Of a DNA stretch of 64,000 nt, positions 38,267 through 64,000 are shown piece by piece (positions within the stretch are counted from its first letter, which is position 1; every line of letters begins with the position of its first letter). The translations under genes and the position numbers were made by a program. The notes beneath the pieces were generated by a model. That model made no database searches. It had not been told where the DNA came from and worked only from the letters and a program-made list of their open reading frames with translations. Location of the stretch: the NCBI GenBank assembly GCA_018343915.1, contig JABRWF010000003.1, positions 1,674,001 through 1,738,000 of the forward strand. The letters run 5' to 3'. This DNA is from Agroathelia rolfsii. Taxonomy: Eukaryota > Basidiomycota > Agaricomycetes > Amylocorticiales > Amylocorticiaceae.

Positions 38267-38609
38267 TGTTACAAGTCACTTGTTGTATTATAAATTTATT
38301 TAGGATTTGTCACTATTTTTCCAATTTTTCTCTGATTTTTCTGTATTTTTTAGTATATAATATGTATATTATATAAGCAGATATTACATAAATACTTTGA
38401 TGACTAAGCAAGTCATATAATCAGTCATCATGTGACTGGCTATTATGTGACCACTAGTTATATGACTTATTATGTAAGCAGATCTAGAGCATAGGTCTGG
38501 ATTATGACACTATTATAGACTCACTATAGTGCAATATTGCATCATACTTAGCACCTCTGTGCACAAACCATATACTAGGTGCACAGACTAGGTAGAAATA
38601 GTATATAAC

Positions 38610-39498: not shown

Positions 39499-39628
39499 AT
39501 AACCTTGTAGTGTCTCTATCTAAAGACCCTAGATTTTGTTCTCTTTATCTTTAGGTAAGCACAAGTAGTGCTGTGTATTTAATTAGCTATTAACATAATA
39601 AAAACTTTGTGTTCAGAGTCTCTATCTC

Positions 39629-40229: not shown

Positions 40230-40266
40230 ATCTCTCTCTCTCCCCTCTTCCTAAAAATCCCTTGGT

Positions 40267-40955
40267 GTCAAGAGTATACCTAACTCTTACTACCAAAACT
40301 CAACCAGTACCTATAAAAACCTCTGTAAGGTACAAGGTAGCTATCAAGAGTACACCTGCCTTTTACCACCAAAACTCAACCAGAGCCTATATTAACCCCT
40401 GTAAGGTATAGAGTAGCCTGTAATAGCTGTTTTATAACTCCCAAGGCCTGGGATACAAGGATGTACACACCTTGTGCATGGTCTCTACTATCACTCAAGA
40501 TGGAGCTTTACTGTCACCAAGTTTTACTCTAAGTCTACTAGACTTTCAAACAAGGTCTATAGGTAGGGCACCAACTTTCTTGTGTATGTAGATATATGTG
40601 CAGGGCATCTTAGCCTTGATAAATATAGGGCAAGCCTTTATTTACTTAGGTATACTGAGCACTATGTAATTTTGTATTATTGCAAATACAAATGGTCACT
40701 ACAAGGGCTAGACCTATCTTATACATGTACACAGAGACTGTACTAAGTACATCTCTACTATAAGCAGCACAAAGCACATTTACAACCTTCTAGCACTGAG
40801 CAGAGAGGATTTTAGAAAGGGGGAATAGAATGAGATAGGTGTTAAGAGTATACCTGCCTCTTTTTACTAAAACTCAACCAGAGCCTACAAAAACCTCTCT
40901 AAGGTGTGAGATAGCCTAAAATGGCTGTTTTACTTCTCCCAAGGCCTAGGATGTG
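40267..40955 (-). mobile_element. Fragments of two or three minus-strand LTR-B copies
   Basis: LTR-B starts are seen at about 40,269 (tgtcaagag), 40,342 (tatcaagag) and 40,841 (tgttaagag), each followed by the family's acctgc...actcaacca stretch. None is complete; they interrupt or truncate one another. The exact nesting is not resolved. Confidence 0.6.
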
Positions 40956-42771: not shown

Positions 42772-44010
42772 TCACCCCCCCTTCTAAGGGACATTCCCCT
42801 AGAATTGCCTAAGTCCAAAATACCATAAATCTATAACCAAAGTCTTAACTTGTGTTAGATTCTCCACTTTATAGAAGGGTAGCTTATCAAAGGTAGTTGC
42901 TGAAATCCTTCTTGAGGCACTTGGGTTTTCTTTATAGAATTAGGTAATAAGCCTTTTTGCATGTATATCTTTGACAAATTCCCAACTCTCTTCTCCTGGG
43001 TAATCCTTGTATTCTACTAAGAACTACAGCTTTTTCCATCTTCCATATAGTCAAGTATCTCTAATACATGAGACTTCCTATTCTTCCTCTCCTTCTACTT
43101 CCACTGGTGGGGGTTCTTCTAGGGTTCTTCCCAGAATCTTACTTTCTTGGTAGGGTTGTAAAAGATTTACATGGAAGACATTGTGCACATGCTAATTCTT
43201 AAGGATATTAACTTTGTAGTTTGATTCCCTAATTCTTTTAATTACCTTATAGAGGCTTTGCTTTTTAAGGCTTAGTTTCCTACTTGGTTGTTTGGCAAAC
43301 TTGATATTTTGTACATTAAGCTAGATTCTTGCTCTAGGTTCTAACTATGGGAAGCTTTTTTTTGTTTTAGTCATAATATTGCTTTATGGTTTCCACTATT
43401 TTTCCTAGAGCTGCCTGGGCTTCCTCCTATATATCTTTTAGATTTCCTAACTAATCCTATACTCCTATTGTCTTGACCTAGGGTTGAGGAAGGATTTCTA
43501 TTTTAGGTATAAAACCATAGTTTAGCTCAAAGGGGGTAAACCCTGTAGCTGAACTTTGTTGTTGGTTTAATGCAAATTCTACAATTCCTAGATTCTCTGC
43601 CTAGTTTGTTTGTTATTAGTTTGAGTAAATCCATAAATAGGTTTCAATTTCTTGATTTAGCCTTTCTGTTTATCTATTACTTTATGGATGATAAGCTATA
43701 GATAGGGCTGTTTTGATTTCTAATTTCCAGTGTATTTCTCTTATAACCTAACTTATAAACTGGGGTCCCCTATCTGTGGTCTAGATCTTTAGTATTCTGT
43801 ATAGCTTGAATATGTTTTTTAGATATAATTCTGCTACTTCTACTATAGTCACTGTTTTAACGGTTGGGATTAAATGATATATCTTAGTAAGTTTGTCTAT
43901 TACTACTAAGATAGAGTTAAATTCTCCAGACTGAAGTAACTTTACAATTATATCTACCATAATGTGTTTCTAGGGTTTTGCAGCATAGACAGTGGCTGAA
44001 ATAATATAGA
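42772..44010 (-). mobile_element. Degenerate Ty3/gypsy chromovirus 3' region (integrase core + chromodomain)
   Basis: Minus-strand translation shows an rve integrase core: HIMVDIIVKLLQSGEFNSIL, TDRGPQF, then IVEFALNQQQSSATGFTPFE. Further on (about 42,940-43,090) a chromodomain relic is readable: FLVEYKDYPGEESWEFVKDI. This places it among chromodomain-bearing chromoviruses, which target heterochromatin in fungi. Many stops interrupt the frame; those checked (tag for cag, tga for cga) are C-to-T changes. The 5' part (gag, protease, RT) is missing, cut off near 44,010 by other LTR-like sequence. Non-functional. Confidence 0.85.
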
Positions 44011-44017
44011 GGGGGGT

Positions 44018-44962
44018 TGTATAATAACCCTAGTTATATTATATTATAGACACAATAGCATTTACTCATGTCTACCAAGTATACACTTATGTTTACCAAG
44101 TATGATGACTTGGACAAGTATACTAGTATTTTTTGTATTTTTATTACAAATATACCATTATTTTTCTTGTATTTTTACAATTTTTCTACAACAAGTTATA
44201 AGGAAAATATTTTGCAGGCAACGTCTTGTAATATGTGACTAAAATATGTTAGCCCTATATAATAGGAGCATTTATGATAAGAATATATTAGGAAGGCAGA
44301 GTCTAGATCATTCCTTTTCATCAAAAGATCTAGGCTTAGAAATCAGGGTTATTCCTATCACTATATAATTACTAAGGAGTACTAGACTCATCATTCCAAT
44401 TAGTTGCTCATTGGACTTAGTCAGAAAGTACTGCCCCATGATATTTTTAGACTTTGGCTTACTTACCCTAGCTATACATAGACCCTTAGGGCTGTATATA
44501 GGCCTTTGTTTTTAGTATAAATATACCCCTATAGCCCTTACCTAAACTTTAGCTTTAACTTCCTTATCTTTAGGTAAGAGCACCCCTCCTCTTTATGTAT
44601 TAAATACTACTATTAAACTAATATATTCTTGCCTTTAGGCTTGTATACGTCCTAGCCTACCTCCCTCTCTCTTATTTACTTATTAAGTATAAGGCCTGTA
44701 GGGCATCTTAGTAAGGATATCCATACCAGCCCTTGTATAAGGGACAAGAATAAGACCTAGAAGTCCTTAATAAACCAGAGGCATTTGTGTGTAAACTCAA
44801 ATCTACTTCATTATAGTCAAGGCAGAAAAAGACCTTGTAGTTGCTTTTATAGATATAGAGAGCTAAGCTGCTTCACTCAAGTATAAGAAACTTCAAATAT
44901 TATCAGATATAAAGCAAAGGTTATAGAGAAAGCATTTATGCTTAGAGTACCAATCACCTAGC
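44018..44962 (+). mobile_element. Probable LTR-like sequence, partly related to family E
   Basis: The first 100 bases resemble the start of LTR-E (atagcattta, accaagtatac stretches). The remainder has the general layout of the other LTRs here (TATA-like stretch, then a tctttaggtaag segment near 44,570). No target duplication found; assignment uncertain. Confidence 0.4.
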
Positions 44963-45417
44963 CTAGTTGTTACAAGTCGATCTATGTACTATAAATTTAT
45001 TTAGAATTTCTTATTATTTTTCCAAATTTTTCCTAATTTTTCTTGATTTTTTGGTATATAATATATATATATATTATAAGCAGATATTATATAAGCACTC
45101 TGATGACTAAGCAAGTCATGTAACTAGTTATCATGTGACTGGCCCTCATGTAACCACTAGTTATATAAGATATTATGTAAGTAAGGCCTAGAGCATAGGT
45201 CTAGACTATAATATCATCATAGACTTATTATGGTGTAATATCACATTATACTTAGCATTACCATGCACAGACCATGTACCAAGTGCACCGACCAGGTAGA
45301 ATTAGTATATAACCCTGTAGTGTTTTTACCTAAAGACCCCAGATTCATTCTCTTTGTCTTTAGGTAAGCATAAGTAGTGCTTTGTATTTAATAGTTAGCT
45401 AATATAATAACACTTTG

Positions 45418-46113
45418 TATCAGGGGTTGATCTTTTGAATTTTTCACTTTCTTTGATTTTTCATCATTTTATTTGATTTTGTAGATTAGTATTTTGCTTA
45501 CTATACTTGCAATTCTTCTTAGATCAAGATCTTACTTTTTAGGGTCTATTTGGTACTGTTCCTTTACCTTATTTTCTATTCTGATCTTCTTATCTCTTGG
45601 TTGATCTCCTTAGTTTTGCATTTTACTGTACATGTCTTCATTTCTTTACTTTGTGGCTGATATAGCTGCACTTTCATGCTCCTCTTCAATATTGAGACTC
45701 AGCTACTGTATAGTTCATATACATACTTAAGGCTGGCTATCCTAGAAAATGCCTCTCTAGTTTAGACCACTCTGTTCACCACTCAGTGTTCTTTGCTCAA
45801 TCCACTCTTTTACTTTCTTATGACTTAGTGATGATGATGCTGGCTCACTCTGGCTTATGTTCTTTGTCTATGCATTCAGGAAAGGCTGTGGGCTCTAATA
45901 ATCAGTGAGGGATAGAATATTCTAAAAGCCTGCTCTGTTAGGGACATAGGTATGTAAAGTCCTATGATGATTGGCATTTATTAGCCCTTGCCAGAGGTAT
46001 TCCTACTATGTTATATTTCTCAGTTTCCCACCACCTTCTCATTACTCCTTATCCCCCCCCCCTTTTATGGTTGTTTAGAGTGGTTGGTCATGGCTTCTAG
46101 CTATGCCCTAATA
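45418..46113 (+). mobile_element. Solo LTR, family D (copy D1)
   Basis: 696 bases with target duplication ctttg (45413-45417 and 46114-46118), inserted in LTR-B2. Ends tatcagggg and gccctaata are both explained by tg-to-ta / ca-to-ta transitions relative to copy D2. Orientation is arbitrary because no coding parent was seen. Confidence 0.85.
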
Positions 46114-46135
46114 CTTTGTCTTCAGAGTCCCTATC

Positions 46136-46991
46136 TGTCATGGGTACACCCAGACTCTCCTAATTTTTCTTTATTTTCCTGTATTTTTCTTGTATTTTTA
46201 CAATTTTTCTTAGACTTTCTACACATTATTTATTCATAATAGACAGCCTAGGACAATTAGTTACAGAGTACTTAGTTATATGATTGGCTATTATTATATC
46301 TTTGTACCAGTACCTATTAGTAAACAGAGTCTAGACCCTTCTAGTTCCTTCCAAGTCTAGACTCTTGATCAATCAGCTAATGATGCAATGATTATACTAT
46401 CATGCTCAGTTATCTATTTGTACTATATTTAGCATTCCTTTCTATTTCTGTCTCTGTACACAGACTATTCAGAAGTGTACAGACCACCCCTGAAACTTAT
46501 ACAAAGACCCTATAACACTCCCTGAAGGCCTTAGCTTTGACCTTTTGCCTTCAGGTGAGTAAATAAGCATGTATATCTCTCTTTACTATTTACTAATATA
46601 TTTGCCTTTAGGCTCATTGTCCTAGCCCTCTCACCCTTGCCCTCCCTTTGTGCCTTATCAGCCTAAGAGTTGTATAAGGACCTAAGCAAGCTATAGAATA
46701 GGCTATATTGCCTATCTCTCCCTCTCTATATTAAGTCCCTTAATAAATCAGGGCAAAGTGTCACTTAGGGTTATTACCCTCTAAGAAAGAATCTAAGCAT
46801 CTTAGAGTGTTTAGCACTCCCTTCTTTACTAAGCAAGCAGTAACAAGTTATTAGCCAATAGTAGCCTTTGGTGGAAAGTCTTCTAGACTTGGAGTACACC
46901 TTTGGGACCTAGTAGCAGTACATTGTTCTGTTTGTGGTATAGGTAGAGGTCACCTCTTTTGTTTAGATAGTTAAGAGCATGAGCCTTGACA
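46136..46991 (+). mobile_element. Solo LTR, family A (copy A1)
   Basis: 856 bases, tgtcatggg to ccttgaca, with target duplication ctatc (46131-46135 and 46992-46996), inserted in LTR-B2. Same family as the chromovirus LTR at 40956-42771, opposite strand. Confidence 0.9.
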
Positions 46992-47495
46992 CTATCTCCT
47001 CTCTCTCCCTCTCTCTAAAAAATCCTCTGCACTTTATATTAAGAGGTTATAAGTATGCTCAGTGCTGCTTATAGTAGGAGTTTGCTTTATACTACTCCTG
47101 TGTGTATACATAAGATAGGTCCAGCCCTTGTGGTGACTATTTGTATCCGCAATAACACAACCTACATAGTACTTAGTGCATCTAAGCAAGCAAGGACTCT
47201 GCTCTAAGCTTATTGTAGTTAAGATACTCTACACCCCTATTAGCATACACAAGACCTTTGATACTGTGACAGTAGACTTTGCTTGAAAGTTCAGTGAACT
47301 AGAAGTAAAGCTTAGTGACTGGAATACTCTAAAGTGAGTGACAGTTAAGACAAGGCACAAGGCATATATACCTGCATATCCCAGGCCTTGGGAGTTGTAA
47401 AACAGCTATTATAGGCTACCTTGTATCTTAGAGAGGTTTACATAGGCACTGATTGAGTTTTAGTGGCAAGAAGCAGGTGTGCTCTTGATACTAGT

Positions 47496-47889
47496 ATAGT
47501 GACTAAGAAGTTTTCTTTTATAAGGGTAGATTAACAGGAGCATATGGGTAACTAAATAAGACCAAACAAATAATATATATAAAAGGAGTCTTGCAACCCT
47601 CCCTTATATTTTTGAGAGGGTTTTATTGTTTAGTTATGTCAAGAGTATAAGCTTTCATATTAGATCAAAGCTAAAACCTAACTACTATTGAGCTTAGCTC
47701 TAGTATACAGTAGATTCACTGTAATTAGCATAAGCAAAGGAATTAAAAATTTTACATACATTTTCATCTGTCAAAACTTGTCTAGTCTTAAGCTATTTAT
47801 AGAAGCAATTAGTTGGGATCTAATACCTAATTTTAACCCATTCAGATTTAGGCTTGAGAGTATCTGTACTTCTAGGGAAATCTAGTGTT
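47496..47889. other. Unassigned AT-rich sequence
   Basis: Lies between LTR-B2 and LTR-C2. No domain recognised; the small plus-strand frame at 47,688-47,885 has no motif. Possibly part of the older element into which both LTRs were inserted. Confidence 0.35.
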
Positions 47890-47894
47890 GTTAC

Positions 47895-49459
47895 TCTTGA
47901 ACTTTTGTAGTTCTTGAGTTGTATAGTGTGGCTATATACTAGCTCACAAGTTATCAGTTATAAAGCAGATACTTACTTGTATAAAAAGTGTAGGCTTTGG
48001 ATTGTTCCTAAGATAAGGCAAGGTGTCAGGGCATGACTAGAAGCCATGACCAACCACTCCAAACAACCATAAAAGGGGGGGAGGTAAGGAGTAATGAGAA
48101 GGTGGTGGGAAACTGAGAAATATAACATAGTGGGAATACCCCTGGCAAGGGCTAATAAATGCCAATCATCATAGAACTTTACATACCTGTGTCCCTAACA
48201 GAGCAGGCTTTTGGGATATCCTATCCCTCACTGATTATTAGAGCCCACAGCCTTTCCTGAGTGCATAGACAAAGAACATAAGCTAGAGTGAGCTAGCATT
48301 ATCATCACTAAGTCATAAGAAAGTAAAAGAGTGGATTGAGCAAAGAATACTAAGTAGTGAACAGAGTGGTCTGAACTAGAGAAGCATTCTCTAGGACAGC
48401 CAGCCTTAAGTATGTATATGAACTATACAGTAGCTGAGTCTCAATATTGAAGAGGAGCATGAAATTGCAGCTACATCAGCCATAAAGTGAAGAAATGAAG
48501 ACATGTACAGTAAAATGCAAAACTAAGGAGATCAACCAAGAGATAAGAAGATCAGAATAGAAAATAAGGTAAAGAAACAGTACCAAATAGACCCTAAAAA
48601 GTAAGATCTTGATCCAAGAAGAATTGCAAGTACAGTAAGCAAAATACTAATCTATAAAATAAAATAAAATAATGAAAAATCAAAGAAAGTGAAAAATTCA
48701 AAAGATCAACCCCTAACACAAGGTTTCCTAGAATGGGAAGCAATTAGTAACTCTGCTATACTGAAGATAAAATTATAGCTGGTGTCCCTTTGAGACTACC
48801 TACTTATTTTCCCTTGGGAAAGGCTTGTAATCTTTATCTTGTAGACTTGATAAGTCTAGGGTGAAGTTAGTACCCTAGGAGCTAGTCTTGTAGACTATTT
48901 AACTCACTATTTTTGAGTGAAATAACTTATATTTTATAGCTGATTTAGCTGGGGTTTATATACTATAAAATATTCTAATTTCTGAAGGATTTATAAGCAA
49001 TGTCTTTGCTTAAGTAATCTACTTGGTAAGCAAAGAGTATATAGTTTATACTGAAAAATCCGCTCTGTAAGCTAAGTATAGTATTTGTAAGCAAATTGAA
49101 TATTTGAATGAATAGGAAAGTGATATTAGTAATATATCTTAGATATTACTAATGTCTTTAATGGTGATTACTAATATATTTATGTGATTTATAAGCTGAT
49201 TTATAATCACAATTGTGTATTAGTAAGAAAAGTGAATTGTTTGAACAAAAGATATTTACAATGAATATTGAAATATGAATATATTTTGGAAATGTTCATA
49301 ATAAAGTAAATGAACAAATTGCTTTATATCTTCACAACTAATAGTTGTAAATTCTTGAAATAAATAACAGTGATAGATAAGATATAAACTAATTCATTGA
49401 AGTGTTTATTGGAATATTTAGAAAGATTTGATATATTGAAATATATATATCTTTCAATA
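47895..49459 (-). mobile_element. Solo LTR, family C (copy C2), containing LTR-D
   Basis: Runs tcttgaac to ctttcaata, with target duplication gttac at 47890-47894 and gttat at 49460-49464 (one C-to-T difference). LTR-D copy 48024-48718 is inside; without it the length is about 865, like copy C1. Extended identity with C1 (for example the gatatgtctttgcttaag-like segment) is obvious by eye. Confidence 0.82.
48024..48718 (-). mobile_element. Solo LTR, family D (copy D2)
   Basis: 695 bases, tgtcagggc to cccctaaca, with target duplication caagg (48019-48023 and 48719-48723), inserted in LTR-C2. It is the reverse complement of copy D1 and retains intact tg...ca ends. Confidence 0.9.
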
Positions 49460-49979
49460 GTTATCTAAAGGCACTACTATAGAGTTAGTCCGTTACTTCT
49501 AGGGACTTTCTTTAGAAAGTAAAACTGCCTGATCAGACTTGTTCCTTTTACTATATACTTTTATACAATACCAGAGGTACTCCACTTGGTGCCTAAGAAA
49601 GAAGAAGACAATAAATCTGCTTTATAAGTAAATCCATAAAAGGAAAGGTACCTGTAAGGCCTAAAGCCTCCTCTTCTACTGTACCTGCCCTGACCTCTGT
49701 ACCAATCCCTTAGGCTACCAAATATACACCTGCAGAACTGGCTATATCTACCCTATCTGTACCTGAGCCAACCTTTAGTCAACCAAAAACCCCATCTCTA
49801 TCTTGTCTGGCAACCCCAAAGCCCAAATTCTTGAAGGAGGAAGAAAAAGAAGAGGAGTACCCATCTCTCTCCAAATTTAGAAAAACCAAGGCTTCCATTG
49901 TATTATATACCAGATTACATATACCAACTCCTATCCCTACCCCTCCAATAATTTGTACCCCAATTTTCTTGTACCCAAG

Positions 49980-51005
49980 TATTGAAAGATTGAATATTTA
50001 CAGGCTTTATATCTTTCCAATAATTCCAATGAATACTTCAAATAATCATCTAACATCATGTCATACATGATTATTTATTTCATGATTTTACAACTGTTCA
50101 TTGTTGAGATATTAACAATTCTTTACATGCATATATTCATTGAAATAATATGCATATATTCTTTTATTTAATATTTTCAATATTTCATTATATCTAATCT
50201 TATCAGAGATAAGATCATCATATCTGAAGTCACTTGACTTTATCATTTATAAATATCTTTTCATAAATATTAAACAATTCCATTTAAATATTCATTTCTA
50301 AATAATCATTGTGAATATTACTAATTGATTTTTCACGCCCTAGACCCTTGCTTATAAATCACTAAAATATTTACTAAGCAAATTCATAATATTAGTAATA
50401 TTTATAAAATATTACTAATACAGATCTAATAATAGAATATTGAGATCAATAGACATTTTCACTTATTAATACTATACAAATTACTAAGCACACAGATTGC
50501 TTACCAAGCATATTATTCAGCAAATAGGACTATTACTAAGCTGATTTATAAGCTGATTTGTAAGCAATCCTTCTTACTAAGTGGATTAGATAAGCACAGG
50601 ATTAGCTTACTAATCTTGTAGAAATTAGAATATTTTGTATTATATAAGCACCAGCAAATTCGGCTGGAAATGACAAGTTATTTCACTTGAAAATAGTGAG
50701 TTAAATAGTCTACAAGACTAGCTCCTAGAGTACTAACTTCACTAACAGACTTACTAAGTCTACTATAAGACAACAAGCCTTTCCTAAAGGGAAAACAAGT
50801 AGGTAGTCTCAAAGGGACACCGGCTACAGTCTTAACTTAGGTGTAACAGAGTTACTAATCACTTTCACAAATAGGTTTTATTGCCTTTAGACCTATAACA
50901 CCACAGACCATTAACTTTTCAAACAAGTAAGTTAGTTGTCTTTTAAATAGGTAACTAGTAGATTACAAGTAGTCTACATTACACCATTACTACTAACTTT
51001 TAACA
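49980..51005 (+). mobile_element. Solo LTR, divergent family C (copy C3)
   Basis: 1,026 bases, tattgaaag to ttttaaca, with target duplication ccaag (49975-49979 and 51006-51010). It sits inside the gag region of gypsy-2. Related to C1 and C2 in opposite orientation but clearly more diverged. Confidence 0.82.
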
Positions 51006-54000
51006 CCAAGAACCCCTGTCATGTCTGGACAATTATTCTTGTCCCCTACCCCTATGCCTAGTCTTAAAGCTCTCATTGTATAGATGATAAACTTGCACAA
51101 GGAAACTACTGTAATGCTTAGGGGTATTATAGATACTCAGAAAATGCTTGTGGAAATTGCTAATAGACCTACCCCCCTGCTAGCTATAATATTATCAACT
51201 AAGGAAAGGGGCAAGGAACCTGTAAAGTTCAATGGTTCTTATAACATATATTAGAATTTCATCATGGGATTTAAAAACTATCTGGTGCTCAACTCTACAC
51301 TCTATATAACAGATATAGATAAGGGGCATCTTCTAATTAGTCTTCTCACTAGTGGACCTGCATAATGGGCCTAGAAGTAGGCAGAAAAAATTACCAAATC
51401 AGCCATCAAGGGAGAAAAGGATTTTTCTTTTGACAAATTTTTCAAGGCTTTTAAAGGGCTGTACAAGGCCTTTGACTTCAAAAGAGTAGCTCTAGACAAA
51501 TTAAAAAGTCTCAGACAAGGAAGCCAAACAACTTAGAAGTTCATCACAGATTTCTAGGCCATAGCACAATAAACAGACTTATCCAAAGAGGACTAGAAGG
51601 TTTGGTTCCTGAATGGGTTAAATCCCAAAATCCGGAATATATTGGCAGGGTGGGACCCTGTAAACCTTACTATATTGTAGAAAGTAATGGATGCTACCTT
51701 ATAAGCTGAGCAAGGGTTAAGGTTAGCAGAACTTTAGTAGGATACCTGGTATCCACAAAATACACCAATAGGTTCAGCTGCAAACCCCATCATAATAAAT
51801 GCTGCACAAACTCTATCTACCCCCCCTCCCCCATCTAGAATAACCCCAGCTTTGGTGGACAACCTTCCTTTCCCCTTTACAACTAGTCTAAGGTATGCTG
51901 CTTTTATTGTGGGTAGCTTGGTTACCCACAGTGAAGATACCCCTTACTAGGGTATAAACCTCAGGGCTTCCAGGGGACAAGACCCCCTTTGGGCTTGATC
52001 TTGGCAACCGCTTAGGTTATACCTAACCTAGTGGTACCAACAAGCTTAATAGTGCCATTTGCAAGCATAGAGCTGGACTCTTTAGCAGTACTAGTGCACT
52101 TCATACAGATGTATAAAGAACAGGCAGTAGTATTAACTGTGCTAAAGGACCAGATAGGTTTTTTCTAGAGTCAGCTGAAAGGGCTATTTAGTCTGACTCT
52201 TATATTCAAAATAGATTTTCTTCCTTTTCTTCTTGTAACTCTATTTCTCTTTTCTCTTCTGCTTTTTCTTCTGTTTCTAGTGCAAATAGGTAGTACCTCA
52301 AAATTCCAATTATGTTCCATGGACCTTTTTTGTCTCTATCTACTTCTGCTATGATTGACTCCAGAGCATCCTCTTCTTTTATAAACTTTAAATATGCACA
52401 AAAACATAAAATCCCTACAAAAAAATTATCTTGTCCTATTCCTTTATACAATATAGATAATTCCACCAATGCTATTGGTAAAATAGAATACCTTGCAATA
52501 TTGGACACTAATATTGGATAAGAAAGAAAATGTCTACCCTTTTGTGTGGTCAATATAGGACCTAAAGACATTATCTTAGGTATTGATTGGCTGTGGCTGG
52601 AAAACCCTATCATTGACTGGAAAGCTACGGAAGTCACCTTCCTACCTAAAAAGGAATCTATGTCAGCTACTACTATTATGCCCATAGGATACAAAGTATA
52701 TACTAATGTTTTCTCTAAAAGAGAAGTAACTAGATTACCTAGCTATAAGCTATCCAATCATAAAATCAAGTTGTAAGATAAAACTAAGCTTAGATAAGGA
52801 TAGATATACCTCCTCAGCAGCAAAGAAACTAATGTACTCAACACATGGATTGATAATAACTTGGCCAAGGGATTTATTTAAAGATCTAAAAGTAAATTTG
52901 CAGCTCCTATATTTTTTGTACCTAAGAAAGACAGGAAACTTTGACCTGTCTAAGACTACTAGGCATTAAATGATTAGACAGTCAAAAACACCTATCCCCT
53001 ACCATTAATATCAGAAATTGTTGGCTATATAACCCAATTCCGTATCTTCTCCAAAATCAACCTATGGGCGGGTTTCAATAATATTTGAATTTGGAATAGT
53101 AATAAAAGAGAGGCTGTATTTATTATATCTAGAGGTTTATTTGAACCCCTAGTTATGCCTTTTGGCTTATGTAATACCCTATCATCAATGCAGGCCCTTA
53201 TAAACATAACCTTGGAAAGATTTATTCAAGCAGGAAATATTTATGTGTACATTGATGATATTATCATTAGTGTAGCTTCTAGGGAAGAACTATAGCAAAT
53301 AATATTTAAGATTCTAGATACCCTTCAAAAGAAGGATTTATTTGGTAATCTGGACAAGTTCATTGTGGAGCAACCCGAGGTGGAAATATTAGGCTTCATT
53401 GTCTCTTATTGATAAATACATATAGACCCCTCAAAGATTTAACCAATTTTGAACTGACCAACTCCTGTAAATGTTAAATAAGTCCGTCAATTTAGGGGCT
53501 TAGCCAACTATTACTAACGCTTCATTTGTAACTTTGGCACTATCTACAAACCCCTAGATTATCTCACAGGAAAGGTGGACTGGCAATAAGGACTAGAGGA
53601 ATAATCTAGCTTTGACAACCTAAAAGCTGCCTTTGCCATAAACCCCATACTCCAGGTATATATCCAAACAGCCCCTATAAGGATAGAAACTGATGCCTCC
53701 TCTTATGCTACTAGTGGAGTATTATCTTAAAGGGACAAAACTGGAGCTTGGTACTCTGTGGGTTACTTATCAGAATCCATAAACAAGGCAGAATAAAACT
53801 ATAATATTTGGGATAAGGAAATACTTAGGGTCATTCAAGCATTAGATCACTGGAGGCACCTGCTTCAAGGCCTCCCCAAACCCTTCGAAATCTGGATAGA
53901 CTACAAAAACCTGGAATACTGGACCACAGCAAAAAACTTGATCCATAGATAGGCCTGGTAGTCCCTCTTTCTGACAGATTTCAATTTCTGGATTTATTAT

Positions 54001-54166
54001 TGTTACAACCTTAGCAGTACTATGCCATAGACATAATAGCATTTATTTATGTTTACCAAGCATATATTTAGGTTTACCAAGTATATACCTAGGTTCATTT
54101 GGTATAGACTTAAAAAATCATGTAATTACTCAGGTATTTAATATTTATTATATCAAACTACAAATC

Positions 54167-55937
54167 TGTCATAGGTCTATAAACTATAACTATAAGCACT
54201 ATGAATACTATGAAGGATTACTATAGAAAAGACTATTAAAAATACTTAGCAGTAAACAATGGGTTGTAAAGCCTAATCCAAGGCTAGTAGTAACGCTCTT
54301 AGGGTTTCCAACCCTAAGGTTAACTATAAAGAAGTATACTATGACTTTGACAACTATAATAACTATGGCTATGACTTGGGACAATAAGAGTGGTACAATA
54401 GGGGCTTAGGGGCGTAAAGAGAGCCTGGGACAATGAATAACAATGATAGTATTGACAAAAGAGGTCTGTGAGATAGGGAACATCTCTTAGACCTTAGTAA
54501 CTTAAATACATAATTGTATACTATTGTTCTCCTACTTTGGTACGCTTTTCTAGTTACTAATCCTTAATAAATGATCTAATATTATTTCTAGGTTCTTTCT
54601 TGATTGTTTCAATGATTATCATGATGTATTGCAGTTCCTATATAACTGTAATAGTGCCTGAAGATGGGGAATGCAAAGTTACACTCTTTTGTATGACATG
54701 ACGCGTGACATGTCACAACCAGCGCGACAGTGAAAAGGAGTGGAAATAATAATATACCTGTTTCTAAGCCTTGGGCTTAGAATTGAGCTTTGACCAAATG
54801 ATAAACTATGGTTTACTGTGATATACTATGACTTATAGATAATATACTGTCACAACCCTGGTTATGCCATATCATAGCTTCAATAGCATTTATTCAAGTT
54901 TACCAAGCATATATCCAGGTTTACCAAGTATATACCTAGGTTTATTCAGGATAGCTATGGAATTACTTAGGTGTTTAAGTTTTATTTTATCAAGCTATAA
55001 ATCAAGCTATAGATGCCATAGTAAAGTATAAGTCATAGTATATTATTTCTAAGTCACAGTATATTATAGTGGATCATAGTTCACTACTTAGCTATAGCTT
55101 AGTTCTGAGCTAAGGCTCAGAAATAAGCCTATTGTTACTTCCGCTCCCCTACTATCACTGCCGCGCTAGTTGTGACATGTCACGGTCACGTCACACAAAA
55201 GAGCGTAACTTTACATTTTCCTATCTTCAGGCACTATCACAGGTACACAGGAACTACAACACATGCTGATAATCACTGGAACAATCAAGGAGGAACTTAG
55301 GGATTATATTGGATTATTTAGTAAAGGTTAGAAGTCAGTAGAGCGTACCAAAGTAGAGAACAATAGTGTACAGCCATGTATTTAAACCTTTAAGGTCTAA
55401 GAGATGTTCCCCATCTCACAGACCTCTTTCGTCAATACCATCATTGTTATTTACTGTCCTAAGCTTCCTCTAAGCCCCTAAGTTCCCACTGTATTGCTTT
55501 CCTTGTCCTAAGTCATAGTTATAGCATTATAGTTGTCAAAGTCATAGTAGACTCCCTTATAATCAACATTAGGGTTGGAAACCCTAAGAGCGTCATTCCT
55601 AGCCTTGGATTAGGCTAGGTAACCTACTGTTTTTTCCTTAAGCTTTATCTACAGTCTTTTCATAGTAATTCTTTACAATATTCATAGTATTCATAGTCAT
55701 AGTTTGCCCTTCAGTTATAGACCTGTGACATATACTGTGGATATATTATGTATAATAGCCTCTACAGCATGATTTGTAGCTTGATAATAATAATAATAAA
55801 TACTTGAGTGATTTCATGGTTATCTTGAGTGTATACTGAATAAACCTAGGTATATGCTTGGTAAACCTGAATATATGCTTAGTAGACATGATTAAATGCT
55901 ATAGTGTCTATGGCATGGTATAACTATAGTTGTGACA
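54167..55937 (-). mobile_element. Solo LTR, family E (copy E3, middle of the nest)
   Basis: Opposite orientation to E1. Starts on the plus strand as tgtcatagg and ends gttgtgaca, with target duplication aaatc (54162-54166 and 55938-55942). E2 is inserted in it; net length 883 bases. Confidence 0.92.
54848..55730 (+). mobile_element. Solo LTR, family E (copy E2, innermost)
   Basis: 883 bases, tgtcacaacc to gacctgtgaca, with target duplication tatac (54843-54847 and 55731-55735). Intact tg...ca ends and the most CpG sites of the three copies, consistent with being youngest. Confidence 0.93.
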
Positions 55938-58328
55938 AAATCATGCCATAGACACTATAATATAATATACACTATATTGTATTATCTATAAGTCATAGTA
56001 TACTATAGTTGAACTATAGTCTATTATTTAGTTATAGCTAAGTTCTAAGCCTTAGGCTTAGAAAGAGGCATACCATTATTTCCGCTCTCTTTCACTATTG
56101 TGCTAGTTATGACATGTCATGTGTCATGTCACACAAAAGAGTGTAACTCTGCATTTCCTATCTTCAGGCACTATCATAGTTACATAGGAACTACAACACA
56201 TCATGATAATCACTGGAACAATCAAGGAAGATCCTAGGAGTTATATTGGATTATTTAGTAAGAGTTAGAGACTAGAAAAGTATACTAATATAGAGAACAA
56301 TAGTATACTATTATGTATTTAAACCTTTAAGGTCTAAGAGATGTTCCCTATCTCACAGACCTCTTTTATCAATTCTAGTATTATTGTCTCACTGTCTAAA
56401 GTCCCCCTCAAGTGTCTATCAGCTTTAAAGAATATTTTCTTGTCTCTATACCACTCCTACAAGTCCAAGTCATAAGTCATAGTTATTATAGTCACCCTAA
56501 TCATAGTTCTGTTCTTATAAGTAACCTCAGGGTTGGAAACCCTAGAGGCGTTACTTCTAGCCCTGGATTAGGCCACATTAATTATTCTTTATTTTTCATA
56601 GTATTTTATGGTATATATTATCATAGTATTTATAGCTAAAATCACAATATTGCAGGATATTGCTTTAGACCTATGACAATTATTAGAAAGGGTCAGAAAA
56701 TAGCAGAGCTGACATCCTTTTATGTAACCTAGCTTTTTAAGTGTCAGATATGGAAGATAACTACAAAGTAGTCCTACTTAGTCCTAAGCTGTTTTGAGCC
56801 AATACCTCTAGGAAGGGTTACATTCTGATGAAAGGGGAATCTAATCTTATGAAGAGAATCCAAAACATCACCCTAGAAGCTGAAGTAGCTGAAGTATTAT
56901 AACTTGTCAAGGATCTAGGGCCTGTTAAACTCCAGAAGGGACTTGAGGCCTGGAATCAGGAGAACAGGGTAATCCTTTATCAAGGACATATATATATACC
57001 AGCTGACTGCAAGATCCACATGGATATAATAGCTATATACCATAATAGCCTATTAGGTGGTCATCCTGGACAGTATAAAACTCTTGAATTGGTATTTTGA
57101 AACTATTGGTGGCTAGGAATGATAAAAGCTATTAATAAATACGTAGAAACATGCCAGACCTGTATCTAGAATAAGAGCTCAAGGTTGCCTACATTTGACC
57201 TATTACAACTACTCCCAACACCCACACATCTATGGGACCATATAACTATAGATATAATCATCAAACTCTCTAACTCCTAAGGCTATAATAGCATTCTAGT
57301 TATAGTGGATAGATTCTCTAAAATAACTCATGTTATACCTATCATGGAAAAGATCAATGCTATTGGGACTGTAGAACTCCTATAGTCTAATGTGTTTAAG
57401 CTACATAGACTACCATCTCAAATAATATCTGATAGGGGACCCCAGTTTACAAGTAAGGTAATGAAGGAAGTACATAAATATCTAGGTATCACCACTACAA
57501 TGTCCACTACCTATCATCCTCAAATGGATAGGTAATCCAAGCAAGTCAACCAAGAACTTGAGGTATACCTAAGGTTTTTTGTGTCACATAGACAAGATAA
57601 TTGGGCCAGGTTACTACTATCTACAGAATTTGCACTAAATAATAGGGAATATTTAGCCATAAAAATATCCCTCTTTTGTATGAATTATGGGTTTGATCCT
57701 AGAATGGATTACTCCTTATCTGGAATATTCAAAACCCTTGTGTTATAAGACGCTTGCTATACTATAAATTTATTTAGAATTTCTTATTATTTTTCTTATT
57801 TTTTCCGGATTTTTCTCTATTTTCTGATATATAACTTGTATATTATATAAACATTATATAAGCACCCTAATGACTAAGCAAGTTATGTGACTAGTCACCA
57901 TGTAACTGGCCATTATGTAATAAGCTAGCCATGTGACTTATTATGTACGCATAAATCTAGAGTATAGGTCTAAAACATAACACCATCATAAACTCACTAT
58001 AGTACAATATCACATTATACTTAGTACCTCTGTGCACAGACCATGTACCAGTGCACAGACCAGGTAAAAATAGTATATAACCCTGTAGTACTGCTACCTC
58101 TATAAGCATGCATAAGATATGTCCAGCCTATTAGTGGTGACCATTTATATTTGCTGTATACACAAAAACATCATACTTAGTACACTCACCCAACAAAGCT
58201 ATATGCCTAGTTAGCCAGGGTTAAGATGCCTTAACCCCTATCTATATATACAAGATAACTTGTAACTTGACTATAGACCTTGCTTGAAAGTATTCATACT
58301 TGGAGTAAAGCCTGGTGATAGAAGAGCT

Positions 58329-60120
58329 TGTCAAGAGCACACCTATCTCTTGTCACCAAAACTCAACCAGAGCCTACGTTAACCCCTATAAGGTACAGGG
58401 TAGCCTGTAATGGCTTTTTTACAACTCCTAAGGCCTGGGATGCAAGGATGTACATGCCTTATGCATGGTTTCTACTATCACTCAAAATAGAGCTTCACTG
58501 TCACCAGGCTTTACTCTAAGTCTACCAGACTTTCAAGCAAGGTCTACAGTTTGGACACCAAATATCTTGTGTATGTAGATATGTGTGCAGGATATCTTAG
58601 CCTTGATAAATGCAGGGCAAGCCTTTGTTTACTTAAGTATACTGAGCACTATGTTGTTTTGTATTGTTACAGACACAAATGATTACTACGAAGGCTAGAC
58701 CTGTCTTATACATGCATATAAGGAGGCACTTAGCATGCTTGTAACCTTCTGGCATAGAGTCTAAGGGATTTTTCAAGAGAGAGAGAGAGGGGGAGAGATA
58801 AGGACTCTGAAGACAAAGTTTTATTATATTAGCTACTTCTAGATACAAAGCACTATTGTGTGTCAAGGCTCACGCTCTTGACTATCTAAACAACAGAGGT
58901 GACCCCTACTCACACCACAAACAGAACAATGTACTGCTACTAGGTCCCAAAGGTGTACTCCAAGTCTAGAAGACTTTCCACCAAAGGCTACTGTTGGCTA
59001 ATAACTTGTTACTGCTTGCTTAGTAAAGAAGGGAGTGCTAAACACTCTGAGATGCTTAGATTCTTTCTTAGAGGGTAATAACCCTAAGTGACACTTTGCC
59101 CTGATTTATTAAGGGACTTGATATAGAGAGGGGGAGGCAGGCAATACAGCCTGTTCTATAGCTTGCTTAGGTCCTTATACAACCCCTAGGCTGACAAGGC
59201 ACAAAGGGAGGGCAAGGGTGAGAGGGCTAGGACAATGAGCCTGAAGGCAAATGTATTAGTAAATAGTAAAGAGAGATGTACATGCTTATTTACTCACCTG
59301 AAGGCAAAAGGTCAAAGCTAAGGCCTTCAGGGAGTGTTATAGGGTCTTTGTATAAGTTTCAGGGGTGGTCTATGCACTTCTGAATGGTCTGTGCACAGAG
59401 ACAGAAATAGAAAGGAATGCTAAACATAGTACAAATAGATGACTGAGCATGATGGTGCAATCATTGCATCATCAGCTGATTGATCAAGAGTCTAGACTTA
59501 GAATGAACTAGAAGGGTCTAGACTCTGTTTACTAATAGGTACTGGTACAAAGGTATAATAATGGCCGGTCATATAACTAAGTACTCTGTAACCAATTGTC
59601 CTAGGCAGTCTATTATGAATAAATAATGTGTAGAAAGTCCAAGAAAAATGGTAAAAAATACAAGAAAAATACAGGAAAATAAAGAAAAATTAGGAGAGTC
59701 TAGGTGTACCTATGACATTGTGCTTACCTAAAGATAAAGAGAACAGATCTGGGGTCTTCAGGTAGAGGCACTACAGGGTTATATACTATTTCTACCTGGT
59801 CTGTGCACTGGTACATGGTCTGTGCACAGAGGTGCTAAGTATAATGCAATATTATACTATAGTGAGTTTATGATGGTGTTATGTTCTAGACCTATACTCT
59901 AGACCTGCTTACATAATTAGTTATATAACTAGTGGTTATATAATGGCCAGTCACATGATGACTAATTACATAACTTTGCTTAGTTATTAAAGTACTTATG
60001 TAATATCCACTTATATAATATATATGTTATATACCAAAAAATTAAGAAAAATCGGAGAAAAATCTGAAAAATAATGAAAAATCTTAAATAAATTTATAAT
60101 ACAACAAGTGACTTGTAAAA
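58329..60120 (-). mobile_element. Solo LTR, family B (copy B3), containing LTR-A2
   Basis: Starts tgtcaagag, ends acttgtaaaa, with target duplication gagct (58324-58328 and 60121-60125). LTR-A2 lies inside; net length about 930. Confidence 0.87.
58861..59717 (-). mobile_element. Solo LTR, family A (copy A2)
   Basis: 857 bases, tgtcaaggc to cctatgaca, with target duplication ttgtg (58856-58860 and 59718-59722). Reverse complement of copy A1 and highly similar to it, so relatively recent. Confidence 0.92.
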
Positions 60121-60290
60121 GAGCTTAAGTTTGTGTGGTAGTAGAGACAGGGTACAGAGAAATATACACCCCTGCATTCCAAGCTCTAGGAAGTATAAAA
60201 AAGGCCTTACTGCCTACTCCGTACCTTTGAGGAGTTACTGTGAGCTTTAGTTGAGTTTTGGTAACAAGAGTTAGGTATGCTCTTTGTTAT

Positions 60291-61109
60291 GAGATGATAG
60301 ACATGCCATTGTAGAATAGCTGATATATTTTCTATGTAAACAGATATGTTTCTATAGGTTGGCAGTATGCCTCTAATTTTTCCTTATTTTTTCCCTATTT
60401 TTCTTATGTTTTTATCTTTTGATTTGAGTATACAGGATGTACTTCTTTATTTTCTAGTTTCTTGTTGTATTGTTTACATGGTACTATTTTACATTTAGAT
60501 ATGATTCTAGATCTTTTAATGTACATTATTAATTTCCTTCTTTAATTATTGATGCTTCTTTCATCTTTGATCTTTTCTCATACTATACTTCTGTTCTAAC
60601 TCTATTGATCCTTTTCCTTTTCTTTCTTCTATTTCCCTTGATGTGGAGTTAAGGACTATTCTTAGAATACTTGTAACTAGTATATAAAGGCCTGTCCTTA
60701 GGGCCTTTGTAATCCAGCTTGACCACTTTGTCTTTGTCTCTGCCCTTATTACTTGTCTACCTTAGTGCTTTGCTCTGTGCTTAGTACTCTGTCTTAGTCT
60801 CTTTAGGCTTCTTATCTTGTAGCTACCTATATAAGCTTGTAAGAGGAGTATGCTAGTCAGCAACCTATATAAGCTGTGCTATACCTTGTCCCTTAGTGGT
60901 GCTCACTCATACTTATTCCCACTCTCTCTTTTGTGTGTTTTATCACTCTTCCCACTATCATAATACACCTGGACCCCAAGGTTAAGGGGATATAAACAAG
61001 TTCTATCTAGTTAAGGGACTGTAAAGATACTAGATTGTTGAGTGTTGCTTAGGAAAGTGACCTTACTTGTGGGAGACCTTGCATTCAAGTCTTAAAACAT
61101 AGATAGCAC
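60291..61109. other. Unassigned AT-rich repeat sequence
   Basis: Contains a tttttcc-rich stretch and a TATA-like / cttagggcc layout reminiscent of an LTR, but I found no ends or duplication. No coding content recognised. Confidence 0.35.
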
Positions 61110-61625
61110 CTCCTAGTTAGGGGAGGATAAAGATATTAGTATGGCTCCTTTGCCAGCCTTCCAGGCTAGTCTGGTTAGGTTTGGATAAGTTATGAGGATC
61201 TCATGACAATTGTCAGATAACCTAGTTCTCCTTCCTAGTAGCATAAATGCCATCCCAAAATTCCTAGTAGAGGTAGACCCTTGCCTGAGGTTCCGTAGCT
61301 GGTCTCTTGCTATAACCTTTTTGTCAAAAGCTCTAAACAATGTTTTGAAACTTCTCAGAACTTTAGCAAAGATTACTAGTCCTTCTGCCCTCTATCCTTC
61401 ACCTACATATCTTATCTTATTGTACCATAAGCTAGACCATGTAGTTGCACTATCCACTATTAAGCCCAAGAGATACTTGACTTTCTCTTCCTTGGTTACA
61501 TATACTCTAGGGTTGAGTTTGAGGTAAGCTTGGAATTTTTAGACAAATAGATGGAAATTAATCCATTATCCATTGAAGGTAGGAGGTGGGTGCCCAATTT
61601 CTTTGGGTTTAGCCATAGATCCTTA
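61110..61625 (-). mobile_element. Gypsy gag remnant
   Basis: Minus-strand translation shows a Retrotrans_gag core: PPPTFNG, then EEKVKYLLGLIVDSATTW, then FRAFDKKVIARDQLRNLRQG and STRNFGMAF. The LRNLRQG-type block is typical of Ty3/gypsy gag. Stops interrupt it, and no protease or RT is attached. It may belong to the chromovirus family or to another gypsy element. Confidence 0.7.
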
Positions 61626-62306
61626 TTGATTCTGGATCCATTACATTATAGTGGTTTGGTTTGCCACTAATATTTACAACAGATCTGCATTAGTAACTAG
61701 AGCAGGGGGTTGGGGTTGCTCAGCCATAGGAGATTGTACATATAAAGTAAAAGGGGTAGGAAGAGCAGATGTTTATGCAAATAGGAATGGAGGTAGAAAA
61801 GTGGGATTTTCTTTGTTGGAGAATTTGTATTCTCCTAAAGAGGTATCTTCACTACTTTTTCCTCTAGGGTCTAACTAGGGTTATAGTCTTAGTGTGAAAT
61901 GGTGGGCAAGCTCAATAGTAGTTACTAGAGACTCCTAAAGTGATTTGTATAGTAATAAAAGTTTTTTATTGCCCTTTGAGCTAGGCCTAATTCTACTAAG
62001 GTTTTTACTTGTTTTGGGCTACTTATAGTGACCGGAGTCTTTTTTGTCTATCCACTTAGGTAATGTTCCTTTTAATAGCTCAAAAGAACCAATGCAACTG
62101 TGAATACTAATACCACTTGTAATCTAGCCAAGAATACTTCTAAAATAAGAAAAGTATGAATAGGAAGACTACTACTTTTATATGTAAAATGACTATGGTA
62201 GTCTACTAATTTTTACGATAATTGATTTTTGCTTAAAGTAATGTGGCTTACTATACCACCTCTAGTGTATGGAGCAACTAGTGCAGAAAAGAGAGATTTG
62301 TTCTAA
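61626..62306. other. Unassigned sequence
   Basis: No motif recognised on either strand; probably flank of the gag remnant's parent element. Confidence 0.35.
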
Positions 62307-62906
62307 TATCAAGAGCACACCTGACTCTTGCCACTAAAACTCAACCAAAGCTTATAGTAACCCCTCTAAAGTATGGGGTAGGCAATAAGGCCTGTTTTAC
62401 ACTTCCTAGAGCTTGGGATACAGGGGTGTATACTTCTCTATGCCCTGTTTCTACTGTCATGCAAACCTAAGCTCTTCTATCATCAGGCTTTACTCCAAGT
62501 GTAAATACTTTCAAGCAAGGTCTATAGTCAAGTTACAAGTTATTTTGTATGTACAGATAGGGGTTGAGGTATCTTAACCCTGGCCAACTAGGCATAAAGC
62601 TTTATTAGGGCAAGTGTACTAAGTATAATGATGTTTATGTTGTTATAATTGTAAATAGTCACCATAAGGGCTGGACCTATCTTATGCATACACACAAGGG
62701 TAGCACTAAGCTAACCCTTACTACAAGTAGTACTGAGCACACTTGCAACCCTCTGGCATAGAGCCTAAGGGATTTTATTATGAGGGAGGGGAGATAGGGA
62801 CTCTGAAGACAAAGTTGTTATTATGTTAGTTGGACTATTTAATATAAAGCACTACTGTACTTACCTAAAGACAAAGAGAATGAATCTAGGGTCTTTAGGT
62901 AGAGGC
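62307..62906 (-). mobile_element. Left part of an LTR-B copy, cut by the copia insertion
   Basis: Starts tatcaagag (from tgtcaagag) and follows the LTR-B consensus to ttaggtagaggc, where the copia LTR begins. The remainder should lie beyond the right edge of the window. Confidence 0.75.
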
Positions 62907-63095
62907 TATTAGAATAAATGGGATGAGAAAATGACTTGTATATTCGGTAGATAAAATGTATCGGTTTTATACATGTATATTAATTGTGAGACATAAGACA
63001 AAAGAATACAAAAGAAACAAAAGAAACTATTGTTACGATGCATACAAAAAGTTTGTGCTATATTCGTAGCTGTTTATTATCCTTATTATCCAATA
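62907..63095 (-). repeat. 3' LTR of the copia element
   Basis: About 189 bases. On the minus strand it starts tattggataataagg directly after a purine tract (gaggaggag, 63096-63104) and ends attctaata. The short length is normal for Ty1/copia LTRs. Confidence 0.75.
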
Positions 63096-63102
63096 CTCCT
63101 CC

Positions 63103-64000
63103 TCAGCAACAAATTCCCAACATTTCCTTCAATGATTTGTAAGCAGGGCCAGGAAGGGCCTTTGTCAGGATATCGGCACGATTGATCTTGCTTGGCGTAT
63201 ATGTGATGTTGATGACGCAGTTGGTGATTTGTTCGCAAATGAAATGATAGTAAATATCAATATGCTTGGCACGTGAGTAGTGGACAGTGTTATGGGCAAG
63301 CTGGTTAGTGGCAGTGTTATTGGCAAAAATAGTAATGGGCTTGGTCGGTTTAGCTCCGATTGCTTGTAAGAACGTGACGACCCAGGCAGCGTGACGTCCA
63401 GTGCTGCTGAGGGCCATGTATTCGGCTTCCATGGTTGACAGAGCCACGGAAGGTTGTTTCTTGGAGGACCATGAGACCGGGCCGCCGCAGAGTAAGAAGA
63501 CAAAACCGGTAACAGACCGGCGGTCGGTGATGTTGGAAGCCTAGTCGGCGTCTGAGTAAGCAACGACATTCAGCTTGGTGGGGGTATGAGAATATGTGAT
63601 GCCGTCGTCGATAGTGCCTTGTAGGTATCTGAAAATGCGTTTCACGGCATTCCAGTAAGCGTTCGTTGGCCTTGAGTTGAACTGAGAGAGGTGTTGCACG
63701 ACAAATGAGATATCCGGCCGGGTAAGGATGGCCAGATAGAGTAATGCGCCGATAGCAGACTGGTAAGGTGCTTGAGTGATGGTTGCGCCATCGGCGGCTT
63801 TAGCAAGTTTCACGTTAGGTTCCGCGGGTATGTTGAGTGGGAATGATGTAGTCATGTAATATTTCTTGAGTATGGATCTTGTGTAAGCACCCTGCGACAG
63901 GGTGAGCTTCCGCGCGGACCGGTCCCTAGTGACCTCAATGCCGAGAATGTGCCGGACCTGCCCAAGGTCGGTTGTCTCAAATTTGCTGGCTATAGCTGCC
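63103..64000 (-). mobile_element. Ty1/copia polyprotein 3' part (RT C-terminus and RNase H), runs off window
   Basis: The minus-strand frame enters from beyond 64,000. RT end: KFETTDLGQVRHILGIEVTR, LSQGAYTRSILKKYY, then SAIGALLYLAILTRPDISF and YWNAVKRIFRYLQGT. RNase H: YSDAD, then STMEAEYMALSS, NNTATNQLAHN and YTPSKINRADILTKALPG, with the normal end GICC and a stop at 63103-63105. The only break seen is a TAG where the family has Trp (YSDADW), a single G-to-A change near 63,541. Composition is normal and CpG-rich, unlike the sequence to its left, so the insertion is recent. Integrase and gag would lie outside the window. Confidence 0.9.

What the first reader, a model, noticed from the sequence alone, without database searches (positions are those of the whole stretch)
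54001..56678. Three same-family solo LTRs nested like Russian dolls, each with its own 5-base target duplication
E1 (duplication attat) contains E3 in the opposite orientation (aaatc), which contains E2 (tatac). Removing each inner copy and one duplication leaves 902, 883 and 883 bases, so the parse is self-consistent. What first looks like one element with long inverted repeats is resolved into three successive insertions and LTR-LTR deletions. Repeated targeting of an LTR by its own family suggests an insertion preference for heterochromatin or for the LTR itself.
Basis: seen in the sequence. Interest (0 to 1): 0.75.

Follow-up and report, generated by a model that had tools for sequence, protein, structure and literature searches.

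The report
Three nested solo retrotransposon ends
Three leftover ends of related jumping genes sit one inside another in a fungal repeat region, exactly as read, but most likely because the region is full of such elements, not because the element aims at its own kind.

Summary
E1 (54001-56678, ATTAT), E3 (54167-55937, minus strand, AAATC) and E2 (54848-55730, TATAC) are TG...CA elements with perfect 5-bp duplications; net lengths are 902, 883 and 883. Paralogs elsewhere show both inner empty sites. E1 lies in a degenerate Ty3/gypsy pol gene, so four layers are visible.

They are best read as solo LTRs of a chromodomain-bearing Ty3/gypsy lineage. Full-length relatives exist for E2 (99.7% LTR identity) and E1 (about 86%); none was seen for E3. 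The three LTRs are 73-79% identical: sister subfamilies, not copies of one. Best relatives at about 89%, 97% and 99.8% fit the order E1, E3, E2.

An aim at the LTR itself is not supported: outside the window 3 of 56 insertions lie inside an E-type LTR, against 4.7 expected from local density and about 0.3 from an estimated genome-wide density. The preference is for AT-rich, CpG-poor repeat DNA.

Side finding: 90 of 93 LTR 5' ends and 10 of 10 close pol copies lie on four of eight contigs; one tested stretch of C1 and C2, across that divide, is homologous.

The parts
52297..53995 (+). Outermost host, left part: degenerate Ty3/gypsy pol (protease-RT-RNase H region) of a different lineage, interrupted by E1
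   Evidence: tblastn with the E1b pol: residues 26-615 match 52297-54027 at 34% identity, E 6e-84; the last bases of that match run into E1
53996..54000 (.). Left target duplication of E1, ATTAT
   Evidence: direct read
54001..56678 (+). E1: outer solo LTR (net 902 bp in 54001-54166 and 55943-56678), oldest of the three
   Evidence: best relatives 89% over about 700 bp, up to 92% over a shorter stretch; 2 CpG, observed/expected 0.09
54162..54166 (.). Left target duplication of E3 inside E1, AAATC (E1 positions 162-166)
   Evidence: five compared sequences align without a gap there
54167..55937 (-). E3: middle solo LTR (net 883 bp in 54167-54847 and 55736-55937)
   Evidence: best relative 97%
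54843..54847 (.). Left target duplication of E2 inside E3, TATAC (E3 LTR positions 203-207)
   Evidence: empty site in E3-type paralogs
54848..55730 (+). E2: inner solo LTR, 883 bp, youngest; differs at 2 private sites from all 24 other complete copies compared
   Evidence: 99.7% identical to both LTRs of a 6334-bp full-length element
55731..55735 (.). Right target duplication of E2, TATAC
55938..55942 (.). Right target duplication of E3, AAATC
56679..56683 (.). Right target duplication of E1, ATTAT
56930..57706 (+). Outermost host, right part: integrase region of the degenerate Ty3/gypsy pol
   Evidence: tblastn residues 687-945 of the E1b pol, 42% identity, E 3e-62

Best explanation
The stretch records successive Ty3/gypsy insertions into one AT-rich, repeat-dense block of a basidiomycete-like genome. 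A degenerate Ty3/gypsy pol was hit by an E1-lineage element, which was reduced to a solo LTR by recombination between its two LTRs. An E3-lineage element landed in that LTR in the opposite orientation and was reduced in the same way; an E2-lineage element landed in the E3 LTR very recently and was reduced too. The parent lineage encodes a polyprotein with RT, RNase H, integrase, an SH3-like domain and a terminal chromodomain. Its probable mode of targeting (inferred) is the chromodomain tethering the integrase to marked repeat chromatin. LTR-in-LTR nesting then follows from how densely earlier copies fill that compartment and needs no recognition of the LTR. Shown: the insertions, the nesting order, full-length relatives of E2 and of the E1 lineage, and the density comparison. 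Inferred: the chromodomain tether, the chromatin mark, that each deletion was homologous LTR-LTR recombination, and that E3, for which I saw no full-length parent, is a solo LTR of the same kind.
For: Exact parse and duplications. Paralogous empty sites. E2 LTR: 24 other complete copies at 99-100%, four pairs with LTR starts 5451 bp apart, plus a fifth pair whose first LTR is cut at a run of N. 14 of 16 E2 solo LTRs, the focal one included, have a perfect 5-bp duplication; of the five full-length copies two have one, two do not and one cannot be judged. Full-length L039 and L040 have LTR pairs 99.55% and 100% alike and a 1036- or 1152-aa frame with RVT_1, RNase H, H2C2, rve, SH3_Tf2-1 and Chromo domains over the cut-offs. 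CpG observed/expected 0.91 at 1-28000 against 0.10 at 38000-54000 and 0.25 at 56684-64000. In-LTR insertions: 5 of 58 in all (E2 2 of 21, E1b 1 of 7, E3-type 2 of 30); without the window's own two, 3 of 56 against 4.7 expected from local density, P(3 or more) 0.86.
Against: No chromatin or methylation data; CpG depletion is a proxy, and the young E LTRs and pol are themselves CpG-poor (observed/expected 0.20-0.39), so low CpG is partly a property of the family. Exact 5-bp duplications were found for only 14 of the 29 other E3-type copies and 5 of 6 E1b solo LTRs, so many older copies have decayed or rearranged ends. No full-length E3-type parent appears among the 40 scored of 203 first-look candidates. 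L064 abuts an E1-like piece on one side only; counted, it gives 4 of 56, still below 4.7. L072 looks like another LTR-in-LTR case but was fetched because it looked nested and is left out. Two of the 56 (L056, L057) are one insertion in a duplicated segment, so 55 are independent. The sample is small and the density is an average over flanks, so a moderate preference for LTRs cannot be excluded.
Confidence: 0.9

Rival explanations
1. The integrase, or the LTR sequence, directs E elements into E-family LTRs (true self-targeting).
For: Five two-sided LTR-in-LTR insertions in 58 examined; for the 56 outside the window about 0.3 would be expected if copies landed uniformly and E LTRs fill about 0.6% of the genome (my estimate), and 3 were seen, P 0.004. 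The two focal insertions lie within about 41 bp of each other in LTR coordinates.
Against: Local E-LTR density predicts 4.7 of 56. Offsets in the other hosts are about 384-388, 428-433 and 525-530; a 41-bp coincidence of two has about a 9% chance. The 16 E2 duplications read share no motif evident by eye (no formal test).
Confidence: 0.07
2. The unit is not three solo LTRs but one element with long inverted repeats, or a product of inverted-repeat rearrangement.
For: the repeat finder lists arms of 282, 169 and 140 bases at 79-82% complementarity, among 20 inverted pairs.
Against: Each boundary carries its own perfect 5-bp duplication and TG...CA ends, empty sites exist in paralogs, and the E2 LTR flanks full-length pol-bearing elements.
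Confidence: 0.01
3. The 0.9-kb units are short non-autonomous elements (TRIM- or MITE-like) mobilised in trans, not solo LTRs.
For: Single units outnumber full-length copies: 16 against 5 for E2. No full-length E3-type parent was seen.
Against: E2 is 99.7% identical to both LTRs of a full-length element with pol; the E1 lineage also has full-length copies, at about 86% LTR identity.
Confidence: 0.04

Closest known systems
Chromodomain Ty3/gypsy elements (chromoviruses) of Agaricomycetes, named 'Tf2' polyproteins in Rhizoctonia and Ceratobasidium records
   Same: RT-RNase H-H2C2-integrase-SH3-chromodomain architecture; RT/RNase H part up to 61% identical in the 120 listed of 7975 hits. LTR and duplication features of the named relatives were not examined
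   Different: Several sister LTR subfamilies of 838-902 bp in one genome; DNA was searched only in this genome, so how far the LTRs occur elsewhere is unknown
Autoinsertions of Ty3/gypsy elements in plants (Jedlicka et al. 2019, PMC6911290; abstract and passages seen)
   Same: Young copies nested in older related copies; 5-bp duplications predominate
   Different: There, LTRs are reported as not commonly targeted and some families show an excess of autoinsertion; here three solo LTRs are nested, with no excess over local density
crapaud of Podospora anserina (PMC10787394; passages and the start of the abstract seen)
   Same: Multiple LTR subfamilies around a more conserved internal region; solo LTRs common
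   Different: Crapaud variation lies in the 5' half of the LTR; here differences run along the LTR. RIP acts there; here the visible trend is CpG poverty
Nested LTR retrotransposons of maize and centromeric Tcn elements of Cryptococcus (recalled; for Cryptococcus only search listings seen)
   Same: Successive nesting in silent repeat blocks
   Different: No evidence here that the block is a centromere

Membership tests
Solo LTR | Single LTR with TG...CA ends and a perfect target duplication | tested here: met
   All three focal units
Solo LTR (E2) | Full-length element with the same LTR exists | tested here: met
   99.7% identity to both LTRs of L039
Solo LTR (E1) | Full-length element with the same LTR exists | tested here: inconclusive
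   Full-length relatives at about 86% LTR identity only
Solo LTR (E3) | Full-length element with the same LTR exists | tested here: inconclusive
   None seen among 40 scored of 203 candidates
Chromovirus (Ty3/gypsy with chromodomain) | RT, RNase H, integrase order with a C-terminal chromodomain | tested here: met
   Pfam hits over cut-off in L039 and L040; these are the full-length relatives, not the window's LTRs
Chromovirus (Ty3/gypsy with chromodomain) | Placement in an RT tree within the chromoviruses | not tested
   No tree was built; one search gives hit names only
Chromovirus (Ty3/gypsy with chromodomain) | Chromodomain binds a heterochromatin mark and directs integration | not testable with these tools
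   Needs binding and integration assays
Self-targeting (autoinsertion) preference | Insertions in own-lineage LTRs exceed their share of the target compartment | tested here: not met
   3 of 56 against 4.7 expected

The most novel reading that the evidence does not exclude
The chromovirus lineage that made this nest is confined to one of two homologous chromosome sets carried in the same assembly (two nuclei of a dikaryon, or two parental genomes of a hybrid), and although it has been very recently active it has not crossed to the other set. The nest would then be a marker of one nucleus, and the genome a natural test of whether retrotransposition respects nuclear boundaries.
Probability: 0.35. 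Interest if true: 0.6.

Novelty: new member of a known kind. Interest (0 to 1): 0.33.

Why it matters
The nest is a clean, datable record of successive insertions and LTR losses, and it shows how an apparent self-targeting pattern can arise from target density alone. What may matter more is the lopsided distribution: a lineage some of whose LTRs are still identical between copies is nearly missing from about half of the assembly, while the one stretch of that half compared is 92% identical to the other half.

Tried and rejected
Rejected: one element with long inverted repeats; a common insertion offset within the LTR; a duplication motif (16 E2 duplications and 19 of 35 E3-type and E1b copies, nothing evident by eye, no formal test). 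Left open: LTR exchange between subfamilies. LTRs of E2 and E1b differ at 25% of sites while their pol genes differ at 13% of four-fold sites (50 of 374); this suggests faster LTR turnover or recombination but is not decisive.

Considered: a full two-genome assembly. For it: two copies of an RPB2-like gene, on C2 and C1, 95.6% identical over 593 bases and identical in 197 residues, and 2 kb on one side collinear at 91.9%. Against it: the window gene at 5938-6732 has no match outside C3, and the third Rpb2-family hit, on C3, has no partner among the 3 candidates found. 'RPB2' is my reading of a PF00562 match. Single 1.5-kb samples of C1, C4, C7 and C8 matched nothing held from the other contigs, which is uninformative.

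Full report
What was claimed. Three solo LTRs of one family, nested E1 around E3 around E2, each with its own 5-base duplication.

What is there. Every boundary is as stated. Leaving out each inner copy with one duplication gives 902, 883 and 883 bases, which align end to end at 73.5% (E1/E2), 77.2% (E1/E3) and 78.8% (E2/E3), far above shuffled sequence. Uninterrupted paralogs show the sites before insertion. Of 28 E3-type copies that span the E2 site, 14 align with at most 3 gap columns in 50, and three of the four printed are identical over all 50 bases; the other 14 have an 11-base gap at or next to the site. At the E3 site in E1 all five sequences compared align without a gap, the closest at 46 of 50 and the others at 37 of 50. 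The parse is therefore secure. E1 itself interrupts a degenerate Ty3/gypsy pol, 34-42% identical to the E pol, so four layers are visible.

What they are. The genome (37.67 Mb, 8 contigs) holds 24 other complete copies of the E2 LTR at 99-100% identity, among them four pairs with starts 5451 bp apart; a fifth full-length copy is cut at a run of N. L039, one of these elements, is 6334 bp long with LTRs 99.55% alike and flanked by CCTCT; L040, an E1-lineage copy, has identical 848-bp LTRs. Their pol frames carry RVT_1, RNase H, integrase zinc-binding and core domains, an SH3_Tf2-1 domain and a chromodomain, all over the Pfam cut-offs. Among the 120 listed of 7975 hits to the RT/RNase H part, the most similar named proteins are about 61% identical and come from Rhizoctonia and Ceratobasidium; several higher-scoring hits at 41-58% identity carry names of other fungi, a frog, algae and a protist and were not examined. 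E2 is thus a solo LTR of a chromodomain Ty3/gypsy element; E1 belongs to a sister lineage with full-length relatives at about 86% LTR identity; for E3 only single LTRs were seen among the 40 scored candidates.

Order. E2 has two private differences in 883 bases against all 24 other copies. The best relative of E3 is 97% identical; those of E1 are about 89% over 700 bases and up to 92% over shorter stretches. All agree with E1 first, E3 next, E2 last, although subfamily divergence and insertion age are not the same thing. CpG counts are 9 (E2), 7 (E3) and 2 (E1), but the young lineages are CpG-poor too (0.20-0.39 of expectation), so this is weak support. E2, at least, is very young, and so is its reduction to a solo LTR.

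Is the LTR targeted? I took 21 E2 insertions (16 solo, 5 full-length), 7 of the 8 E1b insertions that one search lists, and 30 E3-type insertions (those of the 40 scored for which loci were given). Those with E-type LTR on both sides are: E2, the focal one and C3:5525681 (2 of 21); E1b, C6:3205775 in an E3-type LTR with duplication CTATT (1 of 7); E3-type, the focal one and L060 (2 of 30). L064 has an E1-like piece on one side only. Without the window's two, that is 3 of 56; L056 and L057 are one insertion in a duplicated segment (identical 400-base flanks on both sides), so 55 are independent. Local density of E-type LTR, measured about 100 bp or more from the site in non-nested flanks, is 9.9% (5121 of 51800) for E2 and 7.6% (6005 of 78717) for the rest, which predicts 4.7; three or more arise in 86% of simulations. 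With the nested loci included the densities are 13.0% and 9.1%. If E LTRs fill about 0.6% of the genome, my estimate from 198-302 first-look candidates of about 0.87 kb each, only 0.3 would be expected (P 0.004). So the copies home in on the repeat compartment, and nothing shows that they home in on the LTR. With about 8-10% of the flanks made of E LTRs, a chain of two such hits among some 200 copies is unsurprising (inference).

The compartment. The window's part 1-28000 has 43-52% GC in 2-kb steps and CpG observed/expected 0.91; 38000-54000 has about 33-39% GC and 0.10; 56684-64000 has 0.25. Flanks of E2 copies are mostly 30-42% GC and mostly contain DNA shared between loci, with exceptions up to 51% GC. 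This looks like methylated heterochromatin, but chromatin was not measured. A chromodomain-guided integrase is the simplest mechanism; the experimental precedent (Gao et al. 2008) was seen only in a reference list and is otherwise recalled.

A lopsided genome. The 5'-end pattern has 93 hits: 90 on C2, C3, C5 and C6, two on C1 and one on C8, none on C4 or C7; the backward control has 4 in all. The E2-like variant (25 of 25) and the E1b/E3/E4-like variant (42 of 42) are all on the four contigs, which make up 52% of the assembly; of a third variant, 22 of 25 are. The 10 pol copies with 92% identity or more are all there too. Merged at 100 kb, 25 of 28 clusters are on that set (P 4e-5). Other RT hits, most of a length like that of Ty3 elements, occur on all eight contigs among the 150 scored of 358. 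A conserved gene, RPB2 by my reading of its Pfam match, is present on C2 and C1 at 95.6% DNA identity and 100% protein identity over 197 residues, and 2 kb on one side is collinear at 91.9%. Two homologous chromosome sets from diverged parents would explain this. But two C3 genes tested lack a partner, so the sets are not shown to be complete, and a segmental duplication is not excluded.

Literature. Seven searches were made. 'Autoinsertion' of Ty3/gypsy elements is described in plants, with LTRs reported as not commonly targeted (PMC6911290, abstract and passages). LTR subfamilies around a more conserved interior are described for crapaud (PMC10787394, passages). Inter-haplotype diversity linked to transposable elements is described for a dikaryotic rust (PMC12129025, passages), and transposition in separated nuclei of Marasmius oreades (PMC9674265, passages). 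These searches were not aimed at naming this element, so I make no claim that it is unreported.

Verdict. A correct and careful observation of an ordinary kind of structure; the self-targeting reading is not supported; the distribution between contigs deserves a separate look.

Noticed in passing
Genome contigs C1, C4, C7, C8 against C2, C3, C5, C6: E-lineage LTR 5' ends: 90 of 93 on C2/C3/C5/C6; close pol copies 10 of 10 there. Other RT hits occur on all eight contigs.
   Followed up: partly
L082/L083 and L084/L085 (C2 near 1.32 Mb, C1 near 1.80 Mb): RPB2-like gene present twice, 95.6% DNA and 100% protein identity over the piece compared, with a collinear 2-kb neighbourhood at 91.9%: homologous segments inside one assembly.
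   Followed up: partly
window 5938-6732: Gene has a diverged copy in the opposite orientation about 16 kb away on the same contig (76% and 62% identity in two pieces, C3:1663522-1664303) and no other match.
   Followed up: no
L039, L040, L034: LTRs of E2 and E1b differ at 25% of sites, their pol at 13% of four-fold sites; E4 and E1b LTRs are 86% alike while 1.4 kb of pol is 98% alike: LTRs turn over faster than pol or are exchanged.
   Followed up: partly
window 42913-44103: Degenerate Ty3 pol pieces on the minus strand (31-40% identity) beside a 58-97 base E-LTR-like fragment at about 44007-44103.
   Followed up: no
window 38609-40239 and 47894-50859: Repeat pieces 86-92% identical to the DNA flanking the full-length element at C5:3646421.
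   Followed up: no
L072 (C6:203001-206500): An E4-like LTR apparently inside an E3/E1-like LTR, with unaligned gaps at the junctions; possibly another LTR-in-LTR nest.
   Followed up: no
C2:2039263-2045596 and C2:1128365-1134698: Two full-length E2-type elements lack matching 5-bp flanks, as if formed by recombination between copies.
   Followed up: no
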